From a virus: DNA of 50,859 bases. Below, one piece after another: positions 5,766 to 37,428 of the stretch. Both the position numbers and the translations under genes were made by a program. The notes below the pieces were generated by a model that had not been told where the DNA came from, ran no database searches, and worked only from the letters and a program-made list of their open reading frames with translations. Within the stretch, counting starts at the first letter, position 1. The number at the start of each line of letters is the position of its first letter. The DNA lies in IMG/VR virus record IMGVR_UViG_3300032020_000006, positions 1-50,859 of that record; one strand, given 5' to 3'.

Positions 5766-6238
5766 GTTTTTTCCATCTCCTCTTTTAGTATTGCTTCTAA
5801 CTCGTTGATGCTTGAGTAAACAGCTCGAATGAGGAAGTTATGCGGGATTATGCCGAGAACAACGCAATAACGTGCAAAAACCTCATCGCCCGTCTCTTTA
5901 GACCAGAAATGTAATGCTCTGGCGGCGACGGGAGTTATGAATATTGCTTTGCCGCTTCTGTAAATGCCTGTTCCAGCGTCGAGGAATCTTAGGATATTTC
6001 CGCGCGTGTATGAGCCTACGCCGTATTCGAGTTCTCCTTCTTTGCGGGTTTCGATGCTAGAGGCGGTTAATCCCGTTCCGTGTGTTTCTGCCATAATCAG
6101 ATTCTTTATGCCTCCTTCCAAGATGGCGCATAATCTTTGCAACACCATGTCCATTTTGACTGGAGCCATTTCACCCATAAGTTGAAGTTGTTGGAACACG
6201 AATTCATGGTCTGGAGTCAAGATTTGTATGTTGCTCAT
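5762..6238 (-). CDS. Neck/tail-completion protein, HK97 gp10-like
   Basis: 158 residues from the ATG at 6238, which overlaps the upstream stop (ATGA). An in-frame ATG at 6259 is an alternative. The middle carries RKEGELEYGVGSYTRG and then SGKAIFITPVAARALHFWSK, like the GT.Y....PYA..lefG region of gp10-type head-tail joining proteins. The order gp6-like, terminator-like, gp10-like, tail tube fits this. The probable role is joining head and tail. Confidence 0.6.
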   Translation of the reverse strand: MSNIQILTPDHEFVFQQLQLMGEMAPVKMDMVLQRLCAILEGGIKNLIMAETHGTGLTASSIETRKEGELEYGVGSYTRGNILRFLDAGTGIYRSGKAIFITPVAARALHFWSKETGDEVFARYCVVLGIIPHNFLIRAVYSSINELEAILKEEMEKT

Positions 6239-6681
6239 TTGCTCACTCTCTGGTGGCATATTGTAATGTTGAGGGCTTCTCCGCCCATGAACGGTTCAAT
6301 GTCGAATAGGTCTTCATTCACCTGACGCGTAACAAATACCCACTCCCAACCGTCAGGAGTCGTTAAGTCTCCGTTGTTGACTTTTTTGAGAATGTCGTAG
6401 ATTTCTTCTATGAATTTGTGTTTGAGTTCTTTAGTTTCTTCGACGGATTCGTTTGTCGTTGCTTTCGCTTGCATCCTGATTTTTACGGTTATGAGTGCTA
6501 GGCAGTCGCCTGAACCTTCAGTGTCCCACCTGTTCACGTCTGTTTCTTCTTTTATGATGACGTTGGGCTGGGTTAAAATTCCTTCAGTTCGGCGCATATT
6601 CCTGTGAAAGATAGTGGAATCTTTTTCGACGCTCCAATTCGTTTGTAGAAGGTTAAGGAGCTGAAGTTCGAGATCTTCCAT
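6235..6681 (-). CDS. Probable tail terminator protein
   Basis: 148 residues. ATG at 6681 follows GGAGG-rich sequence and touches the upstream stop (TAATG). It has an N-terminal helix (LLNLLQTNW), then strands with conserved-looking Asp/Arg, and the segment VNRWDTEGSGDCLALITVKI. Size, fold pattern and position between connector and tail-tube genes suggest a tail-tube terminator (gpU-like). No diagnostic motif is present, so the call is by context. Confidence 0.45.
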   Translation of the reverse strand: MEDLELQLLNLLQTNWSVEKDSTIFHRNMRRTEGILTQPNVIIKEETDVNRWDTEGSGDCLALITVKIRMQAKATTNESVEETKELKHKFIEEIYDILKKVNNGDLTTPDGWEWVFVTRQVNEDLFDIEPFMGGEALNITICHQRVSK

Positions 6682-8462: not shown

Positions 8463-10111
8463 TCTAAAGTCACTTCTCCGCTTTCACCTTCCAATTCAAA
8501 TTCACCTTTTTCACCTTCAAGCGTAATTTCTCCACTTTCACCTTCCAATGTAACCTCGAAAGGTTCCGCGACGGAAGGTTTCTGAACTCCTAAAATATGA
8601 GTTAAAAACAAGTTTTTCAAGTAAGTTATAAAACGTGACGGACGACTAAAAACATGGGATATTTTCAGAACTTGCGTATATGCGATTTTGCGAAGCGGTC
8701 TTTGAAATGTGTGAGTTACATTCAGACTTGCAAACCATTGTTTAAATATAGAAGGAATAGTTAAAAGACTATGAATAACCTGTAGTGATTGAGTAAATTT
8801 GATTTGCCTTAATGGTCTAGTAAAGGCGTGTATTGTTTGAACAAGTTGAACATATCCTATTTTTCGTGTTGGTCTTTTGAACGTGTGAGTTACTTGTAGG
8901 TTCGCAAACCATTGTTTAAGGAATAATGTAATGGGTAATGTCCATTCATGTAAAGTTTTCAGAGTTTGCGAAAACTTCATATATCGATGTCGTAAGAATG
9001 TATGAGTTAGATTCGTGATTTGTGTCAACTTCATAAAGCGAACTGGTCTTTTAAATGCATGAGTCAACTGCAAACTGGTTATCCATTGTTTAAGAATTAC
9101 CCCTCCTTTCGTTACCGTCAAAGTGTGAAGTGCTTGTAAAGCTTGTGTAAACCACATGAAACGATGCCTAAGAAACGTGTGGGTTAAGTTTGCAGTTTGC
9201 GTTAACTTCATAAATCGGAATGGTCTTTTGAAACTGTGAAGTGTTTGAAGAGTTTGGGTTAATTTCATAAAGCGGAACGGTTTGCTTAGAACGTGTAATG
9301 AATTCAGGAGTTGTGTGTAGCCTATTTTTCGTGTTGGTCGCGTAAACAAGTGTGAAACGTTTAAGGATTGAGTCAACTTGAAAAAGAGGAGTTTGTGAAG
9401 AATATGGGTTAAGTTCAGATTTTGGCTTAATTTCATAAAGCGGAACGGTCTCGTTAAAGTGTGAGAGGTGTTAAGGTTTTGCGTTAACTTCATAAAGCGG
9501 AACGGTCTCGTTAAAGTGTGAGAGGTGTTAAGGTTTTGCGTTAACTTCATAAACCGTAGCGGTCTCGTTAAAGCATGTATGAGATTTAATAGTTGTGTGT
9601 AACCTATTTTTCGTGTTGGTCGTTTAAACAAGTGCGAAACATTCAATGATTGAGTCAACTTAAAAAATCGAAATTTGCGAAGAACGTGGGTTAAGTTTAA
9701 GTTCTGCGTCAGTTTCATAAAGCGAAAAGGTCGTTCGAGAATGTGTGTAGTTTGCAGATTTTGTGTAAATTTCATGGAACGCAAAGGTCTGCTTAGAAGA
9801 TGTGATGGATTTAGTGGTTGCTGGTAAGTAATCAGGTTAATGTGAACTTCCCGCCCAAAAGGATAATTGGCAAGGTCAACTGTTGTCGTTTTTATAATGG
9901 TTATAGAAGAAATTTGAACCGAATCTCCGTCTGTATATCCACTCGAATATTTTGTTGTGTCTCCTAAATCAACGGCGTATTCGCCAACACTGTTCGTTTT
10001 AATCGTGTATTCTTGATTTTTGGTGACGTTCTTTATGGTGACATCTACGTTGTTCTGAAGGGTTCCCTCCTTCTTGATTTTTCCGTAGATTACATAGGGG
10101 TTTTGTGGCAT
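8459..10111 (-). CDS. Virion protein of tandem 19-residue repeats
   Basis: 550 residues. Residues 1-95 resemble a carboxypeptidase-regulatory/Ig-like domain (YGKIKKEGTLQNNVDVTIKN). From about 100 to 505 it is built of degenerate repeats with the consensus RPFRFMKLTQNLNTSHTLT; some units add an FLKQWFASLQ spacer. The tail has repeated VTLEGESGEI strands. The alternating pattern suggests a beta-stranded fibre or stalk, strongly basic. It lies in the late operon next to a surface-type protein, so a virion fibre is inferred. I recognise no family for the repeat. Confidence 0.7.
   Translation of the reverse strand: MPQNPYVIYGKIKKEGTLQNNVDVTIKNVTKNQEYTIKTNSVGEYAVDLGDTTKYSSGYTDGDSVQISSITIIKTTTVDLANYPFGREVHINLITYQQPLNPSHLLSRPLRSMKFTQNLQTTHILERPFRFMKLTQNLNLTHVLRKFRFFKLTQSLNVSHLFKRPTRKIGYTQLLNLIHALTRPLRFMKLTQNLNTSHTLTRPFRFMKLTQNLNTSHTLTRPFRFMKLSQNLNLTHILHKLLFFKLTQSLNVSHLFTRPTRKIGYTQLLNSLHVLSKPFRFMKLTQTLQTLHSFKRPFRFMKLTQTANLTHTFLRHRFMWFTQALQALHTLTVTKGGVILKQWITSLQLTHAFKRPVRFMKLTQITNLTHTFLRHRYMKFSQTLKTLHEWTLPITLFLKQWFANLQVTHTFKRPTRKIGYVQLVQTIHAFTRPLRQIKFTQSLQVIHSLLTIPSIFKQWFASLNVTHTFQRPLRKIAYTQVLKISHVFSRPSRFITYLKNLFLTHILGVQKPSVAEPFEVTLEGESGEITLEGEKGEFELEGESGEVTLE
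9430..9552 (-). repeat. Exact 57-base tandem repeat
   Basis: Two consecutive 57-base units encoding one 19-residue repeat each are identical or nearly so, unlike the diverged neighbours. This indicates recent expansion by slippage or recombination. Confidence 0.85.
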
Positions 10112-13759: not shown

Positions 13760-13945
13760 TTAAGTTCCAACTCCTTGTTCATAATCATAATAACAAAGCC
13801 TTATAAGGGTTGCTTAGGAAAAAATGACTTAGAAAATCTGCTATTACCAGAGAATAACGTTATTTTAAAATTACTTTCATTCTTTTAAACTTAATTCAAC
13901 GAGTCTTTATATAGTTTGTCATAATCATAGCCATAGTGACCAACT
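13760..13945. promoter_or_regulatory. Divergent early/late promoter region
   Basis: For the late operon (minus) a TATA-like CTTATAAGG lies at 13800-13808, about 42 bases before ATG 13759. For the early operon (plus) TTTATATAG lies at 13906-13914, about 32 bases before ATG 13946, leaving a very short or absent leader. CATAATCATA occurs at 13780-13789 and again at 13920-13929, between each TATA box and its gene, and is a candidate shared operator. Confidence 0.65.
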
Positions 13946-14479
13946 ATGAAGACTGATTCCGAAACGTATCCCGCGATGCTTTCACTTGACGACAAGAACT
14001 ACATTCTCTACATGAAAGACGGAACCTTAAAGATCCATGGAAGCAGCCTTAAAGGAAAACACATGCCTGTTGTTTGCGACAAATTTCGCGATGCCTTATG
14101 CATGTCTCTTTTTCAAAAGAAAGATGTTTTTGATGTTTTTGAGGAGTTTCAAGATTTGTCAGAGTTTCCAGTGCAATCCTTCCAAATCCGCATTTATCCA
14201 AGCAAGACGGACTACAAAACAAGCACATTATATAGCAAACTGTTGAAGCAAGTGGCTTCTGCTGGATTGCGAGTTGTTGCAGGATCTTCGCTGGAGTATG
14301 TTAAGGCGGTTGATGGCTACTGTCCTGTTGTGCTGTTCTCCGAACAAAGCCAGATTGATTTTGTATATTACAAGAACAGGCTTGCGGAGATAGCCAGCCG
14401 TGTCCTTTTCAAACCCGCGAAGTCGCTTCGGAGACGTCTTGATTCTGGTCAGAAAAGTTTGGAGGAATTTAAAAAATGA
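13946..14479 (+). CDS. Family B DNA polymerase, separate C-terminal thumb subunit
   Basis: 177 residues. Residues about 13-32 (SLDDKNYILYMKDGTLKIHG, then KGKHMP) match the start of the family B thumb, where (K)KKYA(L/V)..DG...I.G follows motif C. Near the C-terminus VDGYCPVVLFSEQ and IDFVYYKNRLAEIASRVL match the end of the thumb (ID..YY...). No exonuclease or palm motif is present. The complementary half is at 23050-24729, in the same predicted operon and lacking exactly this region. First gene of the early operon. The two products probably assemble non-covalently. Confidence 0.85.
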   Translation: MKTDSETYPAMLSLDDKNYILYMKDGTLKIHGSSLKGKHMPVVCDKFRDALCMSLFQKKDVFDVFEEFQDLSEFPVQSFQIRIYPSKTDYKTSTLYSKLLKQVASAGLRVVAGSSLEYVKAVDGYCPVVLFSEQSQIDFVYYKNRLAEIASRVLFKPAKSLRRRLDSGQKSLEEFKK

Positions 14480-14595
14480 GAAAAGATTTGAAAATGCGAA
14501 TCGACAGACTTCCAAAAGAATTGCAAAAAATCTTGAGAGACGACATGGAAACTGCTCTTGAAAACCGATTGAAGGTATTGGAAAATGTTAGATGA
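14476..14595 (+). CDS. Short charged helical protein, unknown
   Basis: 39 residues, start ATG overlapping the thumb stop (ATGA) and end overlapping the next gene. Sequence is Lys/Arg/Asp/Glu/Leu-rich (MRIDRLPKELQKILRDD) and predicted as one or two helices. Translational coupling on both sides supports it as real. Confidence 0.6.
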   Translation: MRKDLKMRIDRLPKELQKILRDDMETALENRLKVLENVR

Positions 14596-14806
14596 AAAAC
14601 TGCTTAAACTCAATCTTTCAGAACTACGTGCCTATCTTGTGTTAGCCGACGAAAAGAAAGACATGAATGCGACGGAAGTTGCGGCTAAACTGCAAATACA
14701 ACGCGCGATAACCAGTAGAACTCTCAATATTCTCTATCGTTTCGGGTTGATCCACAAATACAGACGACATAGAGTTTGTTTTTTCTCGGTAATCGGAGGA
14801 ATGTAA
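14585..14806 (+). CDS. Winged-helix transcriptional regulator
   Basis: 73 residues. LNLSELRAYLVLADEKKDMN, then ATEVAAKLQIQRAITSRTLNI and YRFGLIHKYRRHRV give a typical helix-turn-helix with recognition helix and basic wing. Small MarR/ArsR-like size. Early position suggests control of viral transcription. Confidence 0.7.
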   Translation: MLDEKLLKLNLSELRAYLVLADEKKDMNATEVAAKLQIQRAITSRTLNILYRFGLIHKYRRHRVCFFSVIGGM

Positions 14807-14813
14807 AACGAAA

Positions 14814-15245
14814 ATGAAAACTCTAATAATAATCGCTATTTTGGTAGCAATGATCGCCGTATCGTCAGCTCTTATGCAGTTGACACGTCGCATACCTTCA
14901 ACGGGCAAAATCAAAACAGTTGACGTAGGGGTTTACTGGGATCCCGAATGCACACAGAACATAACGTTGATTGATTGGGGCTTCGTAGAACCCGCAGAAA
15001 CCAAGAATGTGACAATATACGTTAAGAACACATCGAACGTTAATGGAACATTAACGCTGGACACTTCAAACTGGAATCCAAGCATTACAGCGTCTTACAT
15101 GAGCCTGACGTGGGATTATAATGGAAGTCTGTTACAAGAAAATGAAGTTCGAAAAGTTGTTCTTTTCCTTACTGTAGCTTCAGACATTTCAGAAATAACG
15201 ACATTCTCGTTTGACATAACCATAACATTCGTGGAGGCACTTTAG
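14814..15245 (+). CDS. Secreted or membrane-anchored beta-sandwich protein
   Basis: 143 residues. N-terminal hydrophobic segment (LIIIAILVAMIAVSSALM) followed by a soluble domain with DVGVYWDPECTQNITLIDWG, AETKNVTIYVKNTSN and later strands. This looks like a single Ig-like or CARDB-type domain of the sort found in archaeal envelope proteins, with several N-glycosylation sequons. Host-derived origin is plausible. Function unknown. Confidence 0.65.
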   Translation: MKTLIIIAILVAMIAVSSALMQLTRRIPSTGKIKTVDVGVYWDPECTQNITLIDWGFVEPAETKNVTIYVKNTSNVNGTLTLDTSNWNPSITASYMSLTWDYNGSLLQENEVRKVVLFLTVASDISEITTFSFDITITFVEAL

Positions 15246-15247
15246 AA

Positions 15248-15448
15248 TTGAAAAAATGTCTAATGATAAAAGGCGGAGAAGAACCTGTTAAAGCACAGAT
15301 TCATTTAGGTATGACTGAATATGAAGGCATCGAATATCTAGTTGTCAAATGTCCAAATCCAGACTGCAAAATCCAAATTATGATTCCCACATGCACAATA
15401 CGGACTTTACTTGCGGCTTCAAAGAAAAAACTGGCAGGCGTCGTTTAA
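15248..15448 (+). CDS. Small protein with a zinc-finger-like Cys pattern
   Basis: 66 residues from TTG at 15248 (GGAGG upstream); ATG at 15263 is an alternative. It carries KCPNPDCKIQIMIPTC. Its stop overlaps the start of the next gene by one base (TAATG). Unknown function. Confidence 0.6.
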   Translation: MKKCLMIKGGEEPVKAQIHLGMTEYEGIEYLVVKCPNPDCKIQIMIPTCTIRTLLAASKKKLAGVV

Positions 15449-16404
15449 TGGAACGACTTGAGCAAATCAGTTTTCTCCAGTTTGAAACTCAGTACCTCGC
15501 CCATCCAGCCACGTTCATTGAGGAAGGAAAGAAACTTCAGAAACAACTTGAAAAACTCGGAATAAAAGTCATCAACCCATTCCAGCGTCAGGAGGATAGT
15601 CCTCAAGAATGGTGGCAAACGCCGCACAGTCCAGAAGATGCTAAACGAGTTGTCGAACGGGATCTTGCATGGATTAGAGAATCCGACGCCGTTTTTGCTT
15701 TTGTTCCAGAACCACTGGGCTATGGCACTATGATGGAAATTTTCTACGCCGCGAAACTCTTAGAGAAACCAGTGTTCATTTATACCACACCCAAATTCCG
15801 CTTTCACCCTTGGCTCATGTACTTCGGACAAATATTCACGAATCTCGATTTTGCTTTGGAAGTCTTGAAACTTCGCAAAAAGATTGAAGGATATGCGTTC
15901 CGCATTGCTCTCGGCGGTAAGATGGGTTCTGGAAAAAGCAGCGTCGCCGACTTTCTAGCTAAATCGTTCCAGTTTAAGCAATATAGTTTCGCCAGCAAAC
16001 TGAAGGAAATCGCTTCAGATCTCTTTGAAATGGAAGTTAAAGACCGCATACTGCTTCAGATGCTCGGAACCAGAGTCCGCGAGATAAGTCTGAATGCTTG
16101 GGTAAATTACGTGATGAGACATGTCAATGCAGATGCTTCGTTGCGTGTGGTCATTGACGACATGCGATACATTAACGAGTCTGAAATCTTGAGAGAAAAC
16201 GGATTCATCCTCGTAAAATTGGATGCTCCAGTCTCAGTTAGAAAGAAACGCGGAGTAACAGGTTTCAACGAGAAAACAGCGGCACATCCCAGTGAAGTTG
16301 AACTCGACGCCATAGATTTTGACTACACTATTGATTCCTCATGCACAGTTGATGAATCATACAGAAAGATAATGGAGATTCTTGTGGAGGTTGCGGAAAA
16401 GTGA
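15448..16404 (+). CDS. Nucleoside deoxyribosyltransferase-like / dNMP kinase fusion
   Basis: 318 residues from ATG at 15448 (TAATG overlap). Residues about 15-115 resemble the nucleoside 2-deoxyribosyltransferase fold: YLAHPATFIEEG, then RDLAWIRESDAVFAF and GYGTMMEIFYAA, with the Asp and Glu expected in the active site. Residues about 150-318 resemble viral deoxynucleoside monophosphate kinases (T4 gp1 type): GGKMGSGKSS P-loop at 156-165, RVVIDDMRYINE and FILVKLDAP. The combination suggests production or modification of deoxynucleotides for viral DNA. Confidence 0.7.
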   Translation: MERLEQISFLQFETQYLAHPATFIEEGKKLQKQLEKLGIKVINPFQRQEDSPQEWWQTPHSPEDAKRVVERDLAWIRESDAVFAFVPEPLGYGTMMEIFYAAKLLEKPVFIYTTPKFRFHPWLMYFGQIFTNLDFALEVLKLRKKIEGYAFRIALGGKMGSGKSSVADFLAKSFQFKQYSFASKLKEIASDLFEMEVKDRILLQMLGTRVREISLNAWVNYVMRHVNADASLRVVIDDMRYINESEILRENGFILVKLDAPVSVRKKRGVTGFNEKTAAHPSEVELDAIDFDYTIDSSCTVDESYRKIMEILVEVAEK

Positions 16405-16817
16405 AAGAACAACTTGAAGCTTTCGTGATATTGTCACAAAGCACAAAATACTATCAATGGCTCAAAACCCATCCTAAAGAAGTAAGTCTATATCGAATCG
16501 GACGTGCGTTTGAATATGCAACGATGAAGAAACTTCGCAGTTGTGGATATTACTGTAAACGTTCGTTTGGCTCAAAAGGAGTCGAAGATATTGTTGCAGT
16601 AAAAGGATTCTCGAAAGGCACCTTAGAAAACTCGATACTTTTTGTTCAATGCAAATATAGTCGTTATCAAGATACCAGTCCCGAAAAATTCGACTTGAAG
16701 GGACTTATCAAACTTGCCGAAAAGTATGGCGGAAAAGCCGTTTTCGCTGGAGTCCACAATCGTCACATGTATTTTATGGTTTGGAATAGAGGTTGGAAAG
16801 AATGGAATCCGAATTAA
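16401..16817 (+). CDS. hjc: Holliday junction resolvase (Hjc-like)
   Basis: 138 residues. It has the archaeal resolvase pattern: GRAFEYATMKKL (Glu38), RSFGSKGVEDIVAV (Asp63) and ILFVQCKYS (Gln83, Lys85), then LIKLAEKYGGKAVFAGV. This is the PD-(D/E)XK arrangement of Hjc/Hje, about the usual length. It overlaps the kinase fusion by four bases. Likely resolves branched DNA before packaging. Confidence 0.82.
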   Translation: MKEQLEAFVILSQSTKYYQWLKTHPKEVSLYRIGRAFEYATMKKLRSCGYYCKRSFGSKGVEDIVAVKGFSKGTLENSILFVQCKYSRYQDTSPEKFDLKGLIKLAEKYGGKAVFAGVHNRHMYFMVWNRGWKEWNPN

Positions 16818-17200
16818 ACAAAGAACTTAAACGTCTTCAACTCAAGTACGGCGCAGGGTTCGAACTTAAACTAGAGTGGCATCCTACCGATTTATTGCAC
16901 AGACCGACGATTCAACGTGCAGATGGCAAGAGGCTTAAAGTTAACGGTGAATGGGCAAATACCACGATTACTATTTACGAAGACGAAAGCCTAGATAAAG
17001 CTCTCCACATACTTAGACATGAATTCATTGAGTGGATGCTTCTTAGCAACTTGGTCGATCCCTACGTTATTCTCGCAAACACATTACAAAATGTCTTTCA
17101 AACCTTGAGTTATAAAGCTCAAGAAAAACAAATCGAACTTTTAGTAAGATTGGAGGATGAAGATTATGAACGGATTAAGAGAAACTCTCACAAAACTTGA
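16802..17200 (+). CDS. Early-operon protein with a HEFIE motif, unknown
   Basis: 132 residues from ATG at 16802 (TTG at 16793 also possible). It contains LDKALHILRHEFIEWMLL, a helix with a His-Glu pair that recalls zinc metalloproteases but lacks the second His of HEXXH. It lies just before the terminase small subunit. A degenerate zincin or a structural helix are both possible. Confidence 0.6.
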   Translation: MESELNKELKRLQLKYGAGFELKLEWHPTDLLHRPTIQRADGKRLKVNGEWANTTITIYEDESLDKALHILRHEFIEWMLLSNLVDPYVILANTLQNVFQTLSYKAQEKQIELLVRLEDEDYERIKRNSHKT

Positions 17201-17552
17201 ATTACTCTGCTGGCAATCCACCACCGAGAAAGAAGCGGAAGACAAAATTCAAGAATATTTAAAGAATTATCCGCATCTCCGAAATCCCGCGTGTATTGAT
17301 TTACTGCGACAAGCCGTGAAAACTTGGCAGAAGATACAGTATTTAGAAGGATTGTGGGAGAAAACGGAAGATGAGAAACAAAAGACGAAGATGAGCGATA
17401 AAATTGAAAAGTTGACGCGAACTTGGATTCAGATGATTGCGAATCTTGGTTTATCCTTCACGAAACAACAATTTATCAGCAAAAAAGCTCCGTTAGTGAA
17501 TCCTCCCGAAGAAATGTTCAAGATGCTGAAACGGAAGGAGAAAGATAAATGA
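17166..17552 (+). CDS. terS: Terminase small subunit, probable
   Basis: 128 residues from ATG at 17166, nine bases after GGAGG. It is helical and highly charged: LCWQSTTEKEAEDKIQ, ACIDLLRQAVKTWQKIQYLE, with a conserved-looking end. Its stop overlaps the terminase large subunit start (ATGA), the standard arrangement. It resembles P27-type small terminases in size and layout. Assigned mainly by position. Confidence 0.6.
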   Translation: MNGLRETLTKLELLCWQSTTEKEAEDKIQEYLKNYPHLRNPACIDLLRQAVKTWQKIQYLEGLWEKTEDEKQKTKMSDKIEKLTRTWIQMIANLGLSFTKQQFISKKAPLVNPPEEMFKMLKRKEKDK

Positions 17553-19219
17553 CCTCTTGGGAAAGTATTGATCCAGAAATTCTTGTTAAAGCGTACGAAG
17601 ATCCGATAGCTTTTGTTACTACAATATTGCCTCAACTACCCATCGAACTAAGTCAGAATCAAGTAAGAATTCTCAGGACGTTCTACGATAAAGACAAGAA
17701 GTACACAGAATTGCAACTTGTTATAGGTCGCAAGGGTGGCAAAACGCTTCTTGTTTCCATAATCGTCCTTTACGAAGTTTACAAACTTCTTCTCACTAAA
17801 GATCTACACAAGAAATATGGACTGATTCCCGACGCCCCAATTTATCTCATGTGTGTCAGCACCAGCTACGAGCAGGCGTTAGGAGTGGTTTTCCAATATA
17901 TTTCTGCTTTGGCTCAGGGAAGTTGGTATCTAAGTAACTATATCGTAAATATTACCAAAGAAGAAATAGAGTTTGCACAAAGAATCAAAGTTCGATGCCA
18001 ACCATGCAGTAGCAGAAGCGGACTTGGCTTTCCTACCTTTTTGAACGTATATGACGAGCACGCCCACATGCTCACGCGATCGGGCAACGCTGCGGGCGAC
18101 GTGGTTTACAATGCGTTGCAACCTAACTTGAAGGTCTTTCGCGGAGACGGCAAAAGCGTCACCATCAGCACGCCCGCGGGCATGGATGGAATATTTTGGG
18201 AACTGTTCAAAACTGGATATGCTGAAGAAGTAAAGCAGAAATGTGATGAACAAGGAACACAACCGTGGAGAGTTGTATTTCAATATTCAAGTTGGGAAAC
18301 AAACCCAACATTGCCATACGACCATCCCGAAATGCAGAAGGAACTGAAGGCGGATCCCCGAAACTTCGAAATGCAATTTGAAGGACTGTTCAGTTCAGTT
18401 CTGCAAGCCGCGTTAGAAGAGAAACAAATTGAAGAATGTGCAATTGGAGTAGAAATCGACGAGAACCTTGAGGATAAGGAAACTCCAAGAATAATCGTGA
18501 TGGATCCTGCAACTGTTGGTTCTGAATATGCGGTAGCGATGGGACATTTAACAGATAAACCAAAGAAGGATTTGGTAGTCGTAGATTTAGTTAAGACTTT
18601 TAAGGGTTCACATAAACATCCCGTGGACATCAACAATGTAGAAAACTTTACACGACAATTATGTAGAAACTTCAAAATCATCTTTATTGGTATCGACCAG
18701 CACCAAAGTGCAGACACAATTCAACGATTCGAAAAAGAAGGTTTGCCCATTCATCTTGTAAACATCACTCCCAAATACAACATGGAAATGTATACTGAAC
18801 TTTTCCGCAGAGTAAACACAATTCACATAATCTATCCGAACAAACCTGAAATTAAAGAAGAACTAAAGTTTCTTCAGAAGAAATACGCGGGATGGGGCTG
18901 GAGAATCGAAGCCGCCCGTGGGCATAATGATGATATCCCCGACGCTATCGCGAATCTATGTTTGCTCTTAACTCAGAACATTGGAAAGCGCGCGGAATGG
19001 GCGGAGATGGTGAAAAATGAAGACAACAAGTGGTCAGATGCTCTTAGAAAAGCTGTCGAAAAATATTTTGAAGACTATTCTGGTTGCCGAGAAGAAAGAG
19101 AAGAACTTGAAAATATTGTGAACATGGCATGGGAAGAAGGTTACGAAGACGCCCGCGAAACCGTCGGCGACTGGATTGACCTATCCGATTTTGCTTCCGA
19201 CAATTCATGGAGAGATTAA
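17549..19219 (+). CDS. terL: Terminase large subunit
   Basis: 556 residues. The ATPase domain has VIGRKGGKTLLVS (Walker A, residues 58-70) and FLNVYDEHAHM (Walker B with catalytic Glu, about 164-174). The RNase H-like nuclease domain has IIVMDPATVGSEYAVAMG (first Asp, about 313) and GHNDDIPDAIANL (last Asp pair, about 470). All main packaging-motor motifs are present at normal length. It is within the early operon, far from portal and capsid genes. Confidence 0.93.
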   Translation: MTSWESIDPEILVKAYEDPIAFVTTILPQLPIELSQNQVRILRTFYDKDKKYTELQLVIGRKGGKTLLVSIIVLYEVYKLLLTKDLHKKYGLIPDAPIYLMCVSTSYEQALGVVFQYISALAQGSWYLSNYIVNITKEEIEFAQRIKVRCQPCSSRSGLGFPTFLNVYDEHAHMLTRSGNAAGDVVYNALQPNLKVFRGDGKSVTISTPAGMDGIFWELFKTGYAEEVKQKCDEQGTQPWRVVFQYSSWETNPTLPYDHPEMQKELKADPRNFEMQFEGLFSSVLQAALEEKQIEECAIGVEIDENLEDKETPRIIVMDPATVGSEYAVAMGHLTDKPKKDLVVVDLVKTFKGSHKHPVDINNVENFTRQLCRNFKIIFIGIDQHQSADTIQRFEKEGLPIHLVNITPKYNMEMYTELFRRVNTIHIIYPNKPEIKEELKFLQKKYAGWGWRIEAARGHNDDIPDAIANLCLLLTQNIGKRAEWAEMVKNEDNKWSDALRKAVEKYFEDYSGCREEREELENIVNMAWEEGYEDARETVGDWIDLSDFASDNSWRD

Positions 19220-19397
19220 CACGAAAGAAAAACCCAAAATTAAATGTCCCGACTTCATTACATGCACGCGCAAAGTCGATGCTAACGATTTCAATAAATA
19301 TTGTTGCAATGGCTACTATCAATGCTACTATTATTCGATTAATCACACAACATTTCTCAGTCCTACGCAATGGGCGAAAAAGAGGAATATAACATGA
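19191..19397 (+). CDS. Small Cys-rich protein, paralogue of the one at 39191
   Basis: Reads KIKCPDFITCTRK, FNKYCCNGYYQC and LSPTQWAKK. The start is unclear: TTG at 19191 or 19176 inside terL, or ATT at 19215 after GGAGAG. The stop overlaps the next ATG (ATGA). Spacing of Cys residues and the P.(Q/E)W end match the gene at 39191-39382, suggesting one zinc-binding family. Confidence 0.6.
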   Translation: MLPTIHGEINTKEKPKIKCPDFITCTRKVDANDFNKYCCNGYYQCYYYSINHTTFLSPTQWAKKRNIT

Positions 19398-19966
19398 AAA
19401 TCGCCCTAGTCGGAACACACAACTCTGGCAAAACAACCGCCCTCTGGAACGTGGGTTCAGAACTGAAGAAGAGAGGATACAAAGATTTCACGTTAATTCA
19501 GGAAGTTGTGAGAGCCTGCCCATATCCCATGTTTGATCCAGCCTTTAATTTCCAATGCCAACTATGGACGATGTTGCATCAGATTCTCGCGGAAATGGAG
19601 GCTCAACGAAGATACAAGAATGTAATAACGGACAGATCTGTGTTCGACCAGTTAGTTTACTATCGAGCAAAGTTGCCGAATAAGTCTGACTACCTTAAAG
19701 ATCCTTATTATGCAGAATTGACGATGTTAAGAAATCTCGCAAACAAATGGGAAGACTACTATCCTTATGATTACATTTTCTGGTTTAGACCGCTGGAAGT
19801 TGACAACAAACGGAAACAGTTTCAAAAATGTGTGGACAAGTTGTTTGGACATGAACTTTGGGAACCATTTCCCCAAACCTCTGTAGTAGAAGTTCGAACT
19901 CCCAAAAATGAAAGATGTAAAAAGGTTACGGAAAAAATTTTGGAGTTGTTTGAAAATGAAAAATGA
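19394..19966 (+). CDS. P-loop nucleotide/nucleoside kinase-like ATPase
   Basis: 190 residues from ATG at 19394. MKIALVGTHNSGKTTALWNV holds the Walker A motif at residues 7-15. VITDRSVFDQLVYY is the DRS/T motif of deoxynucleoside-kinase-like and NadR-like AAA_28 proteins, followed by a DYIFWFRP strand. It probably phosphorylates a nucleoside, nucleotide or cofactor. It follows a terminase and overlaps the holin-like gene. Confidence 0.7.
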   Translation: MKIALVGTHNSGKTTALWNVGSELKKRGYKDFTLIQEVVRACPYPMFDPAFNFQCQLWTMLHQILAEMEAQRRYKNVITDRSVFDQLVYYRAKLPNKSDYLKDPYYAELTMLRNLANKWEDYYPYDYIFWFRPLEVDNKRKQFQKCVDKLFGHELWEPFPQTSVVEVRTPKNERCKKVTEKILELFENEK

Positions 19967-20156
19967 TGAATTGTTGAATGAAATCCGCCACTTATTCGAA
20001 AGCTTCGACAAAGATTTGGAAGACCAAGGCAAAGATGTGGCATACGTAAAAGGAGTCATTGCGGAGATGCAGAGACACAATGGAAGAATAGTGAAACTTC
20101 TAGCAGGAATAATCACTACGTTACTTTCTGTAATCGTATATCTGGTGGCGACATGA
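19956..20156 (+). CDS. Small one-span membrane protein, holin- or spanin-like
   Basis: 66 residues. An N-terminal amphipathic coiled region (LLNEIRHLFESFDKDLEDQG) is followed by a C-terminal membrane span (LLAGIITTLLSVIVYLVAT) with little tail. This layout resembles XhlA-type small phage membrane proteins. It is followed with ATGA overlap by a zinc-peptidase gene, so a lysis pair is possible but unproven. Confidence 0.6.
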   Translation: MKNDELLNEIRHLFESFDKDLEDQGKDVAYVKGVIAEMQRHNGRIVKLLAGIITTLLSVIVYLVAT

Positions 20157-20548
20157 TGTTGAATCCGATAAAACTGCTTAAAAAATTCACGAACATCGTC
20201 GTCCGCTCGCTTCCTTGGCTTGAACGATACCGACTGATTCAAAAAGGCATCTCTATTTCACGCGTAGCAGCTTTCGTGACTCCAAAGGACTTGGAGACAC
20301 TTTATTTACATAAAGAAGGAACTTTCATTAAAAACCGAATCTACTGGGAAGAAAATATCGTTACTGTAATAACTCACGAAAAACTCCATATTATACTTCA
20401 CCAGATGAAACTAGACCACGAAAGCGACATGTTAGATAAAGTTTTTCCAATTATTTCCAAAAGCCACTTCTTTGTTGACGGAGACTGGGAGTGGCTTAAA
20501 GGAAAATGGCGTTGGGATGGAGAAAAATGGAGCAGAATGAATTTTTAA
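20153..20548 (+). CDS. Zinc metallopeptidase-like protein (HEXXHXXXH)
   Basis: 131 residues. THEKLHIILH gives His75-Glu76-x-x-His79 and His83, matching the zinc site of minimal gluzincin/metzincin-like viral peptidases. The C-terminus is Trp-rich (DGDWEWLKGKWRWDGEKWSR). Adjacent to the holin-like gene. Could act in egress or protein processing; the substrate is unknown. Confidence 0.6.
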   Translation: MMLNPIKLLKKFTNIVVRSLPWLERYRLIQKGISISRVAAFVTPKDLETLYLHKEGTFIKNRIYWEENIVTVITHEKLHIILHQMKLDHESDMLDKVFPIISKSHFFVDGDWEWLKGKWRWDGEKWSRMNF

Positions 20549-23049
20549 TAAAGTTCGAACAAATCTGTGGCGTTAAGAAACCCATATTCATTAACAGTAG
20601 CGACACGTTCGCGGTGACAGATGAATCCCTCAGATGGGCTAAAGATCTAACAGCAACAAGTATCGGCAGATATAGACTCACAAACAAAAACAGCGACGTA
20701 TGTGAACTCTGGATTGACGTTGACAATCACGACGGAATCCCATTCAAACAATATAAAGAAGAACGGTTGACTCCATCAATACAAAAACTGAACAACTTAG
20801 GAGTCTCGAACGACTACATCTTCCCGAAGGTCAGTGGCACAGGCATTCATCTTCACGTTTTTATAAGCGACCTTCCTACAAACGTGGACATAAATGATTT
20901 GTTTGCAAAAGCGACTCCCGAAAGTGCAGACCAAAGAAGTCTGGTCGAAAAACATAAGATAAGAGAGTATGGCGCCGACACCAGTACCAAGAAAGGATTT
21001 TGTGGTTACATGTCGATAGGTGAATTGTTAAAGGCTCGACAACTTCCAACATTCAAAGAAGCCGTCTTTCCTCAAATAAAACTGTTCAAATGCTCGCCCG
21101 AATTTTTCTTAAATCTCTCCTTAATCAAAGCAGATAGAGAACAAACAAAAATTGAGAAAGACGCAATCGTTGATTACGAAAGAGACGGAGACTTTATGAA
21201 TTTGTTTAAGTGTCCGCTCGTAGCGAACTTGGCTAAGAAAAGCGAACAGGAACATCATCTTTACCATAACGAACGTCTTTTTCTAATGTGTCAGTTCATC
21301 CATTTTGGTGAAGAAAGCAGAAAGAAATTTCACGAAATAATTTCTCACTGTGATGATTATAAGGAGAAACTTACTCAAGATTTCATAGACCACGCCATGA
21401 ACGCAAACTACCATCCGATAACGTGCAAGTGGGCGAAGGACATGCGACTGGGTTGCCCGCCAGACTGTAAAGGTTCGGGCGGAAAAAGTCCTATAAAGTT
21501 TGCGTGGACACCATTAAGTCTTGACGACCTAAAAAAAGAATATCGAAAAATCTTGTTGCTGGCTCCAGAAGACGACATTGTAATAGACATTCTCTTAGCG
21601 ACGATACTTGATCCAAAAATTGAAGGTGAACTTGTATGGCTGTTCTTTATTGCCCCCGCAGCGTGGGGAAAAACTGTTATTCTAAAATCTTTACATGATC
21701 CAAAATGGTCGCGCCTAGAAGACTCGATTACTCCGCAAACGTTCATCAGCGGAAAAACATACAAAGACAAGAAAACAGGCGAAGATAGACTTGTAGAAGG
21801 ATTACTTCCAAAACTTAACGGAAAAACACTAATTATCAAAGAATTCACAACCGAATTAATGCATGGCGAGGAAGTACGAAACGACGTTTTCGGGCAACTA
21901 AGAGCAATCCACGACAGATACTTCAGTAAGACGTTTGGAAGTATAGATGTTGACAAAATTCCTGAAGAATGGAAGCACGTAAAAATGGGATTCATCGCTG
22001 GATGTGTTCCCTACATAGATCGATATGGAACGTTGAACGTACTTCTTGGAGAAAGATATTTAAAACTTAGATTGAGACAGCCACCAAGAACAGAAGCGGC
22101 AAAAATAGCACTTATGAACGCTAAACAAATAGAACGAATGCAAGTCATCCTCAGTAAAAAAGTAAAACGCTTTATAGCCAATATTCAGATACCAGAAGAA
22201 ATTACTGAGCAAGATCCGCCAGAAGAATATCTCGATAAACTAGCCAATCTCGGCGAGTTCATCGTTCAATGTCGCAAACCAGTCACAACAACAAGAGACG
22301 GAATGGGTATTAAACTATACGAATATGAAGATCTCACAGAACTTCCAACAAGAGTTTCCGCTCAACTATGGAAACTTGGAAAAATGCTTATGATTGTTAC
22401 TAACGTCAGTAAATTCGACAAAACCATTTATAAGGCTCTCATTCGAGTAGCATTCGACACAATACCGCAAGAACGACTGGGAATAATCCTGACACTTTAT
22501 AACGAAAAACAACCCATGTCAAAAACAAGAATTTCAGAAATCCTCAAATGGGACTATAGAAAAGTCATTGAACACACAAAACAAATGGTATATCTCGGAT
22601 TACTGCATACAGATCCAAACGACAACTACTATCTTGACGAGTACATTCGCGCCACAATGAAGAAAGCCAACATACTGGAGAAGGTTAGAGGAACTAGCAT
22701 AAGTGGATTGGTTGACTACAACATAATAATAAACAATACTGCACCCTCTCTAAAGGATCTCCAGTATGGGAAATACCATGAAAATGTGGTTTTGTGCAGT
22801 GATGGAGCAGTTATTAATGGTGGTGTAACTACTGATGCCAAGAAACTATACGGTGAAAAGGTTGCATCTACAAGTTACCTTCAGAATCGTTGCATGGTCT
22901 GCGGTCGTGTTCCTGTGGGTAAAAATTTTGAGTTGATTCGCGACGGTTACGTAGACATTATTGTTAAGTTCTGTCGGGGCTGTTATGTGCGTTGGTTCTA
23001 TGAGCGTGAACGCATCGGCGACTACGACATGTGGGAGGTTCTACTTTAA
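20506..23049 (+). CDS. Replicative primase-helicase (AEP primase plus helicase)
   Basis: 847 residues (an ATG at 20527 is an alternative start). N-terminal archaeo-eukaryotic primase motifs: ELWIDVDNHDG (Asp71, Asp73) and VSGTGIHLHVF (His115). A Cys-bearing linker (CKWAKDMRLGCPPDCKGSGG) follows. The helicase part has APAAWGKTVILKS (Walker A, about 383-395) and KTLIIKEFTTE (Walker B-like), then a winged-helix region (ISEILKWDYRKVIEHTKQMV) and a final CMVCGR...CRGCY zinc ribbon. This is the domain order of many archaeal virus and plasmid replication proteins. Base composition becomes more GC-rich near its 3' end. Confidence 0.82.
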   Translation: MALGWRKMEQNEFLIKFEQICGVKKPIFINSSDTFAVTDESLRWAKDLTATSIGRYRLTNKNSDVCELWIDVDNHDGIPFKQYKEERLTPSIQKLNNLGVSNDYIFPKVSGTGIHLHVFISDLPTNVDINDLFAKATPESADQRSLVEKHKIREYGADTSTKKGFCGYMSIGELLKARQLPTFKEAVFPQIKLFKCSPEFFLNLSLIKADREQTKIEKDAIVDYERDGDFMNLFKCPLVANLAKKSEQEHHLYHNERLFLMCQFIHFGEESRKKFHEIISHCDDYKEKLTQDFIDHAMNANYHPITCKWAKDMRLGCPPDCKGSGGKSPIKFAWTPLSLDDLKKEYRKILLLAPEDDIVIDILLATILDPKIEGELVWLFFIAPAAWGKTVILKSLHDPKWSRLEDSITPQTFISGKTYKDKKTGEDRLVEGLLPKLNGKTLIIKEFTTELMHGEEVRNDVFGQLRAIHDRYFSKTFGSIDVDKIPEEWKHVKMGFIAGCVPYIDRYGTLNVLLGERYLKLRLRQPPRTEAAKIALMNAKQIERMQVILSKKVKRFIANIQIPEEITEQDPPEEYLDKLANLGEFIVQCRKPVTTTRDGMGIKLYEYEDLTELPTRVSAQLWKLGKMLMIVTNVSKFDKTIYKALIRVAFDTIPQERLGIILTLYNEKQPMSKTRISEILKWDYRKVIEHTKQMVYLGLLHTDPNDNYYLDEYIRATMKKANILEKVRGTSISGLVDYNIIINNTAPSLKDLQYGKYHENVVLCSDGAVINGGVTTDAKKLYGEKVASTSYLQNRCMVCGRVPVGKNFELIRDGYVDIIVKFCRGCYVRWFYERERIGDYDMWEVLL

Positions 23050-24729
23050 TTGTTGTTAAGTGTTGAACCCTTCGACGACAGCGTTGAAGGCACGTTACTT
23101 GACCTGTGGTATGTTGGCGGCGAGCACAAGACGGTTCGCCCGCCCTGTATGCCCCACTATTTCAGCCAAGTGGAACAGGGCGACGCGCAACTTGTGAGGC
23201 TCCGCCTCTTGAGCCAGCCGCAGATAGAGCAAATGGTTTATCGTGTTGACTTTCCGACGTTGCAGTCGTTGGATCGCTTTCGTCTTTTCGGGGCGATGGA
23301 GTCGCACAAAAGGTTCGTCGACGTGCTGACGTCTGACTTCGGCTTCGAGCAACCCTCTGGTGAACCTTCGGTTCTCAGTTGGGATGTGGAAAGCTTCACT
23401 TTCAGTAAGATAGCACCTGACTGGCGACGGGACACTATTCGTTCAATCAGCGTGTGGTCGTATGAGGAAAAGGTTGTGGAAACTTGGCGTGAACTGCTGG
23501 GCGACGCGGTGCTGATGGTTGGTAGTGATGACGAGTTCGGCATCTGCTGGAGCGTGGACGACGTCCATGATGAGGAATGGGTGATTCATCAATTTATCAA
23601 GTTCGTGCAGAGTTTCAATCCCGACGTGTTGTGTGGCTACAACGACGGCGACTATGATTTGCGTTTGCTTTTGACGCGGTGCAATATGCTTCGCATTGCA
23701 TGTCGCCTTGGAAGAGACGGCTCGATTCCTTATGTTCTCACTCGTCGGTATGAACGTCGGGGCAAAGAACGTGAAATCCAAATTGTGCGAATCCGTGGTC
23801 GAGTGCATTTTGACGTTCTCACCGAAGTCCTATTCGACCAGACACTTTACGATCTTAAAGGGCGCGGTCAAGTGGAAGTCGCTGCTCACTTCGGGTTTGC
23901 ACCGATTGAAGATGTGAACCATGCCAGCATTCCCGAAGAACGGCTTGCGGAAGTAAACTTGGACGACGCGCGTTGTTGCTATGGCTTGGCGAAACTTTAT
24001 TCAGAGAACATTTACGCTTTGTGTGATTATCTTAAAGTTCCGTTAAACTTGGTGGTCGAACGCTCTCCCTCCCACATTCCCAACTGGTTCTACGGGCAAG
24101 AGTATAGTCGGCTTGGAATCGTCAGCGACGGCTACAACAATGAGCGGTTCCCGCAGATCTTCGCTCGTGGAGGCAAACCCTACCAAGGGGCGTTCGTAAA
24201 CTGTTACAAGACGGGACTGTTTTGGAATGTGGAGCATATCGACTACGAAGGTTTCTATCCCTCCATCATGGTTGACTACAATCTCAGTCCTGAAACTGTG
24301 TCTCTTATGGAAACTAAACCGTACACGGGCGAGTACCATTTTGAACATCACGACGGTTACGACATTATCGAGGTTCCAGACAAGCCCAAGCAGGGGGAGG
24401 CACTGCAGTTCGTGTGTCGTGTTGACACTAGCAAAGATTCGGTGACTCGGACTCGGTTGAAGTGGATTGCTGATGAGCGGGCGAGGCTCAAGGCGGAGCA
24501 GAAGAAGACGGGGGATGAACGCCTAGAAAGTCGCCAGTATGCTTTGAAGGTGATTCAAAACACTCTCTATGGCTATAGTGGGACTCCCTACGCTCTCTAC
24601 GGCAACGTCCTTGTGGCGATTTTGATTACGGCTCTTGCGCGTTACCACATTCAAGAGTTGATGGGGAAATTGAAGAAGGAAGGGAAGCAGATTATTGAGG
24701 TAGATACAGATGGGTTGTATTGCGTATAG
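23050..24729 (+). CDS. polB: Family B DNA polymerase, exonuclease-palm subunit lacking the thumb
   Basis: 559 residues, TTG start right after the primase stop. Exo I VLSWDVESF (about 109-117), Exo II LCGYNDGDYDLRLL (about 193-206), motif A HIDYEGFYPSIM (about 396-407), motif B ALKVIQNTLYGYSG (about 497-510) and motif C VDTDGLYCV, with Asp552 and Asp554, are all present. The protein stops five residues after DTD, so the whole thumb is missing. That region is encoded at 13946-14479. The gene is visibly more GC-rich than its neighbours. A truncated pseudogene is less likely because every catalytic motif is intact and the missing part exists as a separate open gene. Confidence 0.88.
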   Translation: MLLSVEPFDDSVEGTLLDLWYVGGEHKTVRPPCMPHYFSQVEQGDAQLVRLRLLSQPQIEQMVYRVDFPTLQSLDRFRLFGAMESHKRFVDVLTSDFGFEQPSGEPSVLSWDVESFTFSKIAPDWRRDTIRSISVWSYEEKVVETWRELLGDAVLMVGSDDEFGICWSVDDVHDEEWVIHQFIKFVQSFNPDVLCGYNDGDYDLRLLLTRCNMLRIACRLGRDGSIPYVLTRRYERRGKEREIQIVRIRGRVHFDVLTEVLFDQTLYDLKGRGQVEVAAHFGFAPIEDVNHASIPEERLAEVNLDDARCCYGLAKLYSENIYALCDYLKVPLNLVVERSPSHIPNWFYGQEYSRLGIVSDGYNNERFPQIFARGGKPYQGAFVNCYKTGLFWNVEHIDYEGFYPSIMVDYNLSPETVSLMETKPYTGEYHFEHHDGYDIIEVPDKPKQGEALQFVCRVDTSKDSVTRTRLKWIADERARLKAEQKKTGDERLESRQYALKVIQNTLYGYSGTPYALYGNVLVAILITALARYHIQELMGKLKKEGKQIIEVDTDGLYCV

Positions 24730-33082: not shown

Positions 33083-33373
33083 TCAGGATGGCTCCATTAG
33101 AATTGTTTTTGCTTTCAGAAGAGTGTTCAAAAGTTGCGTTCCTTCTGGTGTTAAGACGTAGTAAAGTCGGTGTCTATTTTCGTTGTTGTATTGTTGAAAC
33201 GGTTTTTTAGATGGCATCACCATTGTGACGAGTTTTTTCATTATTAAGTATTCGAGTTCTTCTTTTATCCTATGACAATTGATTCCTGCTTTTTGCATTA
33301 TATGGGTGATAATTATCGGTTCGTGTAGGGCTTTCATTATGTCTATTTTCATAGTAAATGTGTCTCTTCTCAT
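33083..33373 (-). CDS. Winged-helix DNA-binding protein
   Basis: 96 residues. EPIIITHIMQKAGINCHRIK, then EELEYLIMKKLVTMV and LYYVLTPEGTQLLNTLL fit the winged-helix domain of archaeal transcription regulators. It overlaps the portal stop by four bases. Likely regulator of head or accessory genes. Confidence 0.7.
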   Translation of the reverse strand: MRRDTFTMKIDIMKALHEPIIITHIMQKAGINCHRIKEELEYLIMKKLVTMVMPSKKPFQQYNNENRHRLYYVLTPEGTQLLNTLLKAKTILMEPS

Positions 33374-36337: not shown

Positions 36338-37428
36338 GACCTTTTGGAATAGACGAAGAATTCAAGCCGAAGCCAGTTATCTTTGACTACTCGAAGATTC
36401 TTGTGAATCCTGAAGATCCGTGGAAGTCTGAGCCAGATCCGTTCATAAAGCGGTATAACGGCAAGACTTATTACGATCCGTGGGTTGGCATCGATTATAC
36501 ACCGAATCCGTGGATGAAGAACAACAGGGCAATTGAAAGGGCTATATGGGCGTTTGAATCTAGCTCGCAGACTGTGCCCACGATTTTGCCAACATTTCTT
36601 GATCCAGCGTTCACTTATGCGGTGCCGACAGACGCTCCGTTGTATGCTGCTTTGCCTCGCAAGGCAAGTTTAGGCGCGATGGAGAGTTATGTCAGAATCA
36701 AGACGTTGGGTGCGCCGACATATTGGGTTGCTCAAGATGCAAGTCCATCTTATGTGGCTCCGAGTGGTGCTGGAATTGAGCGCATCAACGCATTAAAAGT
36801 GATTGCTGAGACTTGGGGCGGAACAACTGGTTTCCAGCGTGCTGCTGCTGAAAGTTTCAAAGACATGCTTGAGGAAGCCCACAGAGAGCGTTTGTACGGT
36901 CTTCTCACAGTAGGTCTTGAAGACGGCTGTATCAATGGTGCGGGAACTACAGTCTACAACCACGGAATCATAACTCAACAGACAGGAACAAATGAGATAG
37001 CTGGCGGTGGTGCGGCTGTGACGCTTGACAAGATTCAGCAAGCCATTCGTGCCGCGTGGGTTGCAGGTGGCGATCTTGAAAGCTACGGATTTGGAGTTAC
37101 AGATCCAGCGACTTATGACTACATAAAGAATTTGGTGAGCGAATACTTAGGCTATGTTAATGTTGAGAACTATGATTTGCCTTGGGGACTAAAGACCATT
37201 AGCATTCAAGGCATTCCGATAATCAAAAGCAGAAAGATGCCTACAGGTTCGGGTGCGAAGGCACTTGTGTTTGTTGACAGACGCTATACATACAACGCAG
37301 TTTTGACCGATGTTACAACTGAACTCTATGGCAAGGTCAAGGATGAACAGAATTTTGCGATTAAGTGGTACGGCAGAACGATAAACCGCGCTCCAGAATT
37401 CGGCGCCATAATAACGGCGATCCTTTAA
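36334..37428 (+). CDS. HK97-fold major capsid protein
   Basis: 364 residues. Directly after the protease. The start (MRPFGIDEEFKPK) is followed by the N-arm, then FLDPAFTYAVPTDAPLYAAL, the helix/P-domain, an A-domain with GVTDPATYDYIKNLVSEYLG, and the end KWYGRTINRAPEFGAIITAIL. Length and neighbourhood fit. There is no separate scaffold gene. The N-terminal residues may be removed by the protease. Confidence 0.85.
   Translation: MRPFGIDEEFKPKPVIFDYSKILVNPEDPWKSEPDPFIKRYNGKTYYDPWVGIDYTPNPWMKNNRAIERAIWAFESSSQTVPTILPTFLDPAFTYAVPTDAPLYAALPRKASLGAMESYVRIKTLGAPTYWVAQDASPSYVAPSGAGIERINALKVIAETWGGTTGFQRAAAESFKDMLEEAHRERLYGLLTVGLEDGCINGAGTTVYNHGIITQQTGTNEIAGGGAAVTLDKIQQAIRAAWVAGGDLESYGFGVTDPATYDYIKNLVSEYLGYVNVENYDLPWGLKTISIQGIPIIKSRKMPTGSGAKALVFVDRRYTYNAVLTDVTTELYGKVKDEQNFAIKWYGRTINRAPEFGAIITAIL

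What the first reader, a model, noticed from the sequence alone, without database searches (positions are those of the whole stretch)
13946..24729. Family B DNA polymerase split into two distant genes, thumb encoded first
The 559-residue protein at 23050-24729 has intact Exo I, Exo II, motif A, motif B and motif C but stops five residues after DTD. The 177-residue protein at 13946-14479 begins with a thumb-like LDDKNYILYMKDG stretch and ends with IDFVYYKNRLAEIASRVL. Together they cover a whole polymerase except about 30-40 residues between motif C and the thumb. Both lie on the plus strand in one predicted operon, in reversed order and 8.6 kb apart. Methanothermobacter PolB is also two-part (established), and Nanoarchaeum uses a split intein, but no intein sequence is visible here. 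A split right after the catalytic DTD in a virus, without an intein, seems worth describing.
Basis: partly seen in the sequence, partly recalled or inferred. Interest (0 to 1): 0.93.

Follow-up and report, generated by a model that had tools for sequence, protein, structure and literature searches.

The report
Viral DNA polymerase with separate thumb gene
In two related viruses the DNA-copying enzyme is encoded as two separate pieces about 9-10 thousand letters apart, with the DNA-gripping 'thumb' as its own gene; a past reshuffling of the genome probably cut the gene in two, and both pieces have been kept by selection.

Summary
Confirmed and extended. The 559-aa protein (23050-24729) is a family B DNA polymerase that stops five residues after the DTD of motif C. 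The 177-aa protein (13946-14479) is the matching thumb: a thumb profile built without it finds it alone among the window's ORFs (E 2.6e-21), and its predicted fold matches 9N/KOD PolB thumbs (E 2.6e-8).

The split is not an assembly error. A second IMG/VR contig (L087, 56-61% identity) has the same two genes, split point, order and strand, 10.1 kb apart. Both halves are under similar purifying selection, and their trees agree.

Five more distant relatives have an intact polB, in the order primase-polB-kinase-terminase. In the split pair the thumb stays beside kinase-terminase, and primase-PolN lies downstream. The polymerase was therefore probably cut by an operon rearrangement, not by an intein or intron. 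Missing between the halves are 27 (window) or 20 (L087) residues, essentially one palm helix.

Best reading: a two-subunit polymerase assembling non-covalently. Assembly and activity are inferred. Split PolBs are known (Methanobacteriales, N. equitans, T4-like 43A/43B). This split site, route of origin and helix loss in a tailed virus were not found described.

The parts
13906..13914 (+). TATA-like box (TTTATATAG) about 40 nt upstream of the thumb start codon; inferred archaeal-type promoter
   Evidence: Sequence. L087 has TTTATAA 38 nt upstream of its thumb ATG. In-frame stops lie directly upstream of the window ATG, so the thumb cannot start earlier.
13946..14479 (+). Thumb subunit (P0001, 177 aa): last palm strand, whole thumb, and a PIP-box-like tail QKSLEEF
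   Evidence: tblastn to C-terminus of intact PolB in L007, E 3e-17, and in L008-L011, E 4e-9 to 6e-12; independent thumb HMM E 2.6e-21, only hit in the window; AF2 pLDDT 86.4, pTM 0.81; Foldseek top hits 9N/KOD PolB, E 2.6e-8, TMq 0.71; 61% identical homologue in L087
15349..16404 (+). Nucleoside deoxyribosyltransferase / (deoxy)nucleotide kinase; marker of the block that follows polB in intact relatives
   Evidence: Pfam PF05014 9.4e-10, PF13238 4.2e-7; homologues downstream of polB in L007, L173, L174, L175
17157..17552 (+). Conserved small gene upstream of terminase; synteny marker
   Evidence: Homologues in L087, L007, L174, L175, L176, in each case upstream of TerL
17549..19219 (+). Terminase large subunit; synteny marker
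   Evidence: PHROG_9 6e-13; 61% identical in L087; found in L007, L174, L175, L176
20506..23049 (+). Putative archaeo-eukaryotic-type primase-helicase (847 aa) directly abutting polN, in the slot held by PrimPol genes in relatives
   Evidence: No Pfam/PHROG hit; motifs read by eye: LWIDVDNHDG (DxD-like), GTGIHLHVF (SxH-like), Walker A-like APAAWGKT. L007 and L087 have Pfam Prim-Pol proteins upstream of polB/polN. Assignment is inference.
23050..24729 (+). Polymerase catalytic subunit (PolN, P0002, 559 aa): N-terminal domain, exonuclease, palm and fingers up to motif C
   Evidence: Pfam 1.7e-16 and 5.9e-15; PHROG_262 1.4e-34 over 16-557; phmmer to Pfu, KOD and other PolBs; 59% identical homologue ending at nearly the same point in L087
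24710..24814 (+). Overlapping +1-frame ORF of 34 aa (MGCIAYRLWKWMYEKIYGYDPEIYPEEQGVPIFP); tested as a possible relic of the missing helix, not supported
   Evidence: Similarity to linkers of five intact relatives not beyond shuffles: 282 of 2000 reach it, and 320 of 8544 peptides in the window score higher

Best explanation
The virus replicates with a two-subunit family B DNA polymerase. The large subunit (PolN) carries the exonuclease, fingers and the catalytic palm through motif C. The small subunit carries the last palm strand, the thumb that grips the primer-template duplex, and a PIP-box-like tail for a sliding clamp. The two associate non-covalently, the thumb subunit's leading strand docking onto the palm sheet. 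The arrangement arose in the common ancestor of this virus and L087, when a rearrangement (block transposition or circular permutation) of the operon primase-polB-kinase-...-terminase broke polB between motif C and the thumb. Primase-PolN ended up downstream of terminase, and the thumb became the first gene with its own promoter-like sequence. One short palm helix was lost at the break. Shown: the two halves, their homology, the conserved split, selection on both, gene orders, and absence of intein or catalogued intron sequence. Inferred: assembly, activity, clamp binding, the rearrangement mechanism, and an archaeal host.
For: Thumb identity by sequence, profile and predicted fold. Same split, order and strand in an independent contig, L087: thumb 6111-6653, PolN 16708-18486. 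Purifying selection on both halves at matching rates: pN 0.298 vs pS 0.897 for the thumb, 0.299 vs 0.807 for PolN, and 0.249 vs 0.972 in the last 120 PolN codons. Trees of the two halves agree: window+L087 are sisters at 100% in both, with path lengths 0.70/0.73 to L087 and 1.99/2.06 to L173. Gene order: in four intact relatives (L007, L173, L175, L176) primase directly precedes intact polB, and in all five (also L174) kinase and/or small genes, and TerL where the contig reaches it, follow; window and L087 have thumb-kinase-...-TerL-...-primase-PolN. The AF2 model of intact L007 PolB places the absent residues 525-551 around a helix at 532-541, between the motif C hairpin (513-524) and the strand 554-566 that the thumb ORF retains. 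Precedent: split PolB subunits of Aeromonas phage 25 (gp43A/B) co-purify and are active, as reported in PMC2988022.
Against: Complex formation was not modelled, because no multimer tool was available, and nothing was measured. The loss of a palm helix that all five close intact relatives keep is an unexplained cost. polN has a higher GC3 and a different third-position AT skew from most other genes of the operon in both viruses, which one co-evolving gene pair does not explain. Only two genomes show the split.
Confidence: 0.82

Rival explanations
1. The two halves are joined after transcription or translation (split intein, trans-spliced intron, or a chain made by frameshifting), so that a single polymerase chain is made.
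For: The break lies close to the pol-c (position III) intein site YGD|TDS, where N. equitans PolB is split (PMC549080). A more distant viral PolB, L048, seems to carry an intein at exactly that site.
Against: PolN reads five (window) or nine (L087) residues past DTD and then stops, and the thumb starts at a Met with polymerase sequence; there is no intein sequence on either half. Joining would still lack 20-27 residues. No Rfam intron in the window. The +1 frame after the stop is not significantly like the linker and L087 has no equivalent.
Confidence: 0.04
2. Mis-assembly or a recent disruption: one continuous polB gene was separated by an assembly error, or polN is a decaying truncated gene.
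For: polN differs in base composition from its neighbours (GC 0.51 against about 0.40), and no reads could be inspected.
Against: The same split and order in an independent contig at 56-61% identity, with pN/pS well below 1 in both halves up to the last codons. The composition difference is shared by L087.
Confidence: 0.02
3. The split began as a pol-c intein that was split or badly excised, as proposed for Methanobacteriales, and the gene move came later or separately; today's enzyme is the same two-subunit polymerase.
For: Position near the pol-c site (PMC549080); intein-mediated origin is proposed for the Methanobacteriales split (PMC4104785); an apparent pol-c intein occurs in the more distant viral PolB L048.
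Against: The five nearest intact relatives carry no intein at this point. The break is past TD, not between D and T. The move of primase-PolN as a block explains the separation without an intein.
Confidence: 0.12
4. The halves no longer form one polymerase: PolN or the thumb has been put to another use and replication relies on a host polymerase.
For: One palm helix is missing, the Exo III tyrosine position is not Tyr, and the genes are far apart.
Against: All catalytic Asp/Glu residues are kept. The two halves evolve at equal rates with agreeing trees. No second polymerase gene was found in the window: a PF00136 search found PolN only.
Confidence: 0.08

Closest known systems
Split PolB of Methanobacteriales (M. 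thermautotrophicus PolB, Kelman et al. 1999, cited in PMC4104785)
   Same: Family B polymerase encoded by two genes; from general knowledge it works without covalent joining and the small part (about 223 aa) is of similar size to a thumb fragment
   Different: Here in a tailed virus, probably by operon rearrangement rather than the intein excision proposed there. The exact Methanobacteriales split point could not be compared with these tools.
Nanoarchaeum equitans PolB (NEQ068/NEQ528)
   Same: Two non-adjacent genes; break close to motif C (intein position III, PMC549080; PMC4104785)
   Different: N. equitans halves carry split-intein parts; neither half here does, and the break is after the TD of motif C
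T4-like Aeromonas phages 25/44RR gp43A-gp43B
   Same: Tailed-phage PolB in two polypeptides without an intein; co-purify and are active for phage 25 (PMC2988022)
   Different: 44RR is cut in the fingers (motif A in one part, motifs B and C in the other) and the two genes are adjacent; associated with an intercistronic sequence or homing endonuclease, not a block move
Rhodothermus phage RM378 DNA polymerase (Rm378p092)
   Same: Phage PolB whose domains are not all in one chain
   Different: The 522-aa ORF starts at motif A and includes the thumb, so the part missing from it is the exonuclease and N-terminal domain; the partner gene was not looked for here
Intact viral PolBs in IMG/VR (L007, L173, L174, L175, L176)
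   Same: Nearest relatives; PolB next to a primase (four of five) and upstream of kinase/TerL-type genes
   Different: One chain of about 720-760 aa with the linker helix present

Membership tests
Family B DNA polymerase | 3'-5' exonuclease domain with catalytic acidic residues | tested here: met
   PF03104 5.9e-15; D112/E114, D203, D306 conserved in alignment; the Exo III Tyr position is not Tyr
Family B DNA polymerase | Palm motifs A, B and C | tested here: met
   D398, K500/N504, D552/D554; PF00136 1.7e-16
Family B DNA polymerase | Thumb domain | tested here: met
   Present as a separate gene: E 2.6e-21, E 2.6e-8 to 9N/KOD PolB
Family B DNA polymerase | Palm helix after motif C | tested here: not met
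   Absent from both halves in window and L087; a stretch of 15-50 residues is present there in all intact relatives aligned, with a predicted helix in L007. Not a defining feature of the family by itself; it lowers confidence in full activity, not the homology.
Family B DNA polymerase | Primer extension activity | not testable with these tools
   Needs a biochemical assay
Split-intein PolB (N. equitans type) | Intein halves at the break | tested here: not met
   No residues beyond polymerase sequence on either half in two genomes
T4-like split gp43 (43A/43B) | Break in the fingers, adjacent genes | tested here: not met
   Break after motif C, 8.6-10.1 kb apart; 44RR compared
Non-covalent two-subunit PolB (Methanobacteriales type) | Two chains that assemble and polymerise | not testable with these tools
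   Needs co-expression or a complex model
Non-covalent two-subunit PolB (Methanobacteriales type) | Same split position as M. thermautotrophicus | not tested
   No Methanobacteriales PolB sequence could be fetched here

The most novel reading that the evidence does not exclude
A replicative PolB working as two unlinked subunits in which the thumb, with the clamp-binding tail, is a free subunit made first from its own promoter, and in which the palm lacks the helix that normally connects it to the thumb. Thumb supply could then limit or switch processivity. The gene order could be a natural, selected permutation of a polymerase operon.
Probability: 0.4. Interest if true: 0.8.

Novelty: new variant of a known kind. 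Interest (0 to 1): 0.66.

Why it matters
It gives a natural example, with intact relatives for comparison, of a replicative polymerase cut at the palm-thumb junction, apparently by genome rearrangement. It marks the motif C/thumb junction as a place where PolB tolerates being cut, as in N. equitans, and makes the question 'is the palm-thumb covalent link needed?' directly testable with a natural pair. It also warns annotation pipelines: PolN looks like a truncated pseudogene and the thumb like an unknown protein (no Pfam, PHROG or PDB sequence hit).

Tried and rejected
P0001 alone against Pfam, PHROGs, PDB sequences, phage genomes and IMG/VR by exact peptide patterns: nothing usable; it needed intact relatives as a bridge.

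Rest of the polymerase directly downstream of 24729 in another frame: none of the right kind. The 34-aa +1-frame ORF looks faintly like the lost linker (shared I....PE.Y) but is not significant against shuffles or other peptides of the window.

Repeats between the two break regions, as traces of a tandem duplication: only 7-12 bp chance matches.

Intron by Rfam: no match in the window.

Host or provirus by a genome-contig scan: only distant PolB relatives in bacterial genomes and MAGs (Bacteroidota, Chlorobiota, Verrucomicrobiota and others) at 22-27% identity; no close relative. Host not settled.

More copies of the split in IMG/VR with alignments of thumb, PolN and TerL: only the L087 contig again, plus intact relatives.

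Full report
What was checked. The window is a 50,859-base virus record of IMG/VR. P0002 (23050-24729, TTG start, 559 aa) is a family B polymerase by Pfam and PHROGs, with exonuclease, motif A, motif B and motif C residues intact, ending EVDTDGLYCV*. P0001 (13946-14479, 177 aa) matches nothing usable by itself in Pfam, PHROGs, PDB sequences or phage genomes.

Thumb identity. An IMG/VR scan with a PolB alignment brought in intact relatives. tblastn of P0001 hits the C-terminal part of the intact PolB of L007 at E 3e-17, and of L008-L011 at E 4e-9 to 6e-12. A thumb HMM built from intact relatives only, without the two stand-alone thumbs, finds P0001 as the single hit among the window's ORFs (E 2.6e-21) and the stand-alone gene in L087 (E 4.9e-20). 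hhalign of the thumb alignment (which includes P0001) against intact L173 gives 99.1%. AlphaFold2 gives P0001 mean pLDDT 86.4 and pTM 0.81, and Foldseek's best PDB matches are 9N, KOD and related PolBs (E 2.6e-8, TMq 0.71). The tail QKSLEEF (QVSLEEF in L087) aligns with QQSLMEW-type tails of L008-L011 and looks like a PCNA-binding PIP box; that reading is inference.

The split is real and conserved. A scan with the window's terminase found L087, on a 44,106-base contig (IMGVR_UViG_3300032053_000154). It has a thumb ORF (6111-6653, 61% identical) and a PolN ORF (16708-18486, 59% identical, ending DTDGLFAVKSVD*), in the same order and strand, 10.05 kb apart. In the window they are 8.57 kb apart. 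Codon comparison of window and L087 gives pN/pS of 0.298/0.897 (thumb), 0.299/0.807 (PolN) and 0.249/0.972 in the last 120 codons of PolN, so neither half, nor PolN's end, is decaying. The two thumbs and the two PolNs differ to the same degree.

What is missing. Aligned to intact L007 PolB (P0009), the window pair lacks residues 525-551 (27 residues) and the L087 pair about 529-548 (20 residues). In the AlphaFold2 model of P0009 (mean pLDDT 80.6; best PDB match a KOD polymerase, E 1.6e-40), the motif C hairpin is 513-524, a helix is 532-541, and the next palm strand is 554-566. The loss is therefore one short helix with its loops; the strand after it is kept by the thumb ORF. All five close intact relatives keep this stretch.

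How it probably arose. Four intact relatives (L007, L173, L175, L176) have a primase overlapping or abutting the start of polB, and L174 an intact polB whose upstream neighbour was not matched. After polB come a kinase and/or small genes related to window 16401, 16793 and 17157, then TerL where the contig reaches it. Window and L087 instead have thumb - kinase - 16401 - 16793 - 17157 - TerL - ... - primase - PolN. A 75-aa gene upstream of the L087 primase also has its relative upstream of the L007 primase. So the thumb sits where polB's 3' end sits in relatives, and primase plus PolN lie on the other side of TerL: a circular permutation of the module with one break inside polB. In the window the primase slot is held by an 847-aa protein without family hits whose motifs look like an archaeo-eukaryotic primase-helicase (by eye). 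Trees of the N part and of the thumb agree: window and L087 are sisters at 100% in both, among intact relatives, with nearly equal path lengths. That fits one split in their ancestor. No repeats remain at the breaks, so the molecular step is not known.

Joining mechanisms considered. There is no intein sequence on either half; the reported pol-c site is YGD|TDS (PMC549080) and PolN continues past it. There is no catalogued intron in the window. A 34-aa ORF in the +1 frame over the PolN stop resembles the lost linker slightly, but not significantly, and L087 has nothing like it.

Mechanism proposed. The two chains assemble without a covalent link into a polymerase, as reported for split gp43 of Aeromonas phage 25 (PMC2988022). 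The thumb subunit would add its leading strand to the palm sheet, and its tail would bind a clamp. TATA-like boxes lie 38-40 nt before the thumb ATG in both viruses, which suggests an archaeal-type promoter. The host is not known.

What is known and what is new. Split PolBs are established in archaea (PMC4104785) and phages. Compared directly here, phage 44RR is cut in the fingers with adjacent genes, and the RM378 polymerase ORF starts at motif A and so lacks the exonuclease. The present case differs in the cut after motif C without an intein, the reversed and distant gene order, the loss of the palm helix, and the evidence for a rearrangement origin. Literature searches found no description of it; the library holds open-access papers only. 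It is a new variant of a known kind.

Limits. Only two genomes have the split, no complex was modelled, nothing was measured, and the Methanobacteriales split position could not be compared.

Noticed in passing
L048:9512-12400 (+): A more distant viral PolB with five in-frame TAG codons and no other stops over this stretch (likely TAG recoding), apparently with a small intein exactly at the pol-c site (YGD ... HN|TDSIFVQF).
   Followed up: partly
window 23050-24729; L087:16708-18486: polN has higher GC (0.51), higher GC3 and a negative third-position AT skew compared with most other operon genes in both viruses, while intact L007 polB does not; unexplained.
   Followed up: partly
window 20506-23049: 847-aa protein without Pfam or PHROG match that looks by eye like a divergent archaeo-eukaryotic primase-helicase in the primase slot next to polN.
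   Followed up: partly
window 43214-44380: Tyrosine-recombinase-type integrase (PF00589, 1.4e-7), so the virus may be temperate.
   Followed up: no
window 36334-37428 and 35105-36337: SU10-like major capsid protein (weak, 8.1e-5, just under cut-off) beside a prohead protease (PF04586), as in tailed viruses; portal at 33370-34779.
   Followed up: no
L087:15205-16707 and 8934-10001: Two DNA methyltransferase genes sit in the L087 module (one between primase and polN) that are not in the window.
   Followed up: no
window 2-2578 (-): A long ORF (859 aa) runs off the left end, so the record is probably not complete at that end unless the genome is circular or permuted.
   Followed up: no
L007:6014-7021: Queuine tRNA-ribosyltransferase-like gene (PHROG_887, 4.1e-36) in an intact relative.
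   Followed up: no
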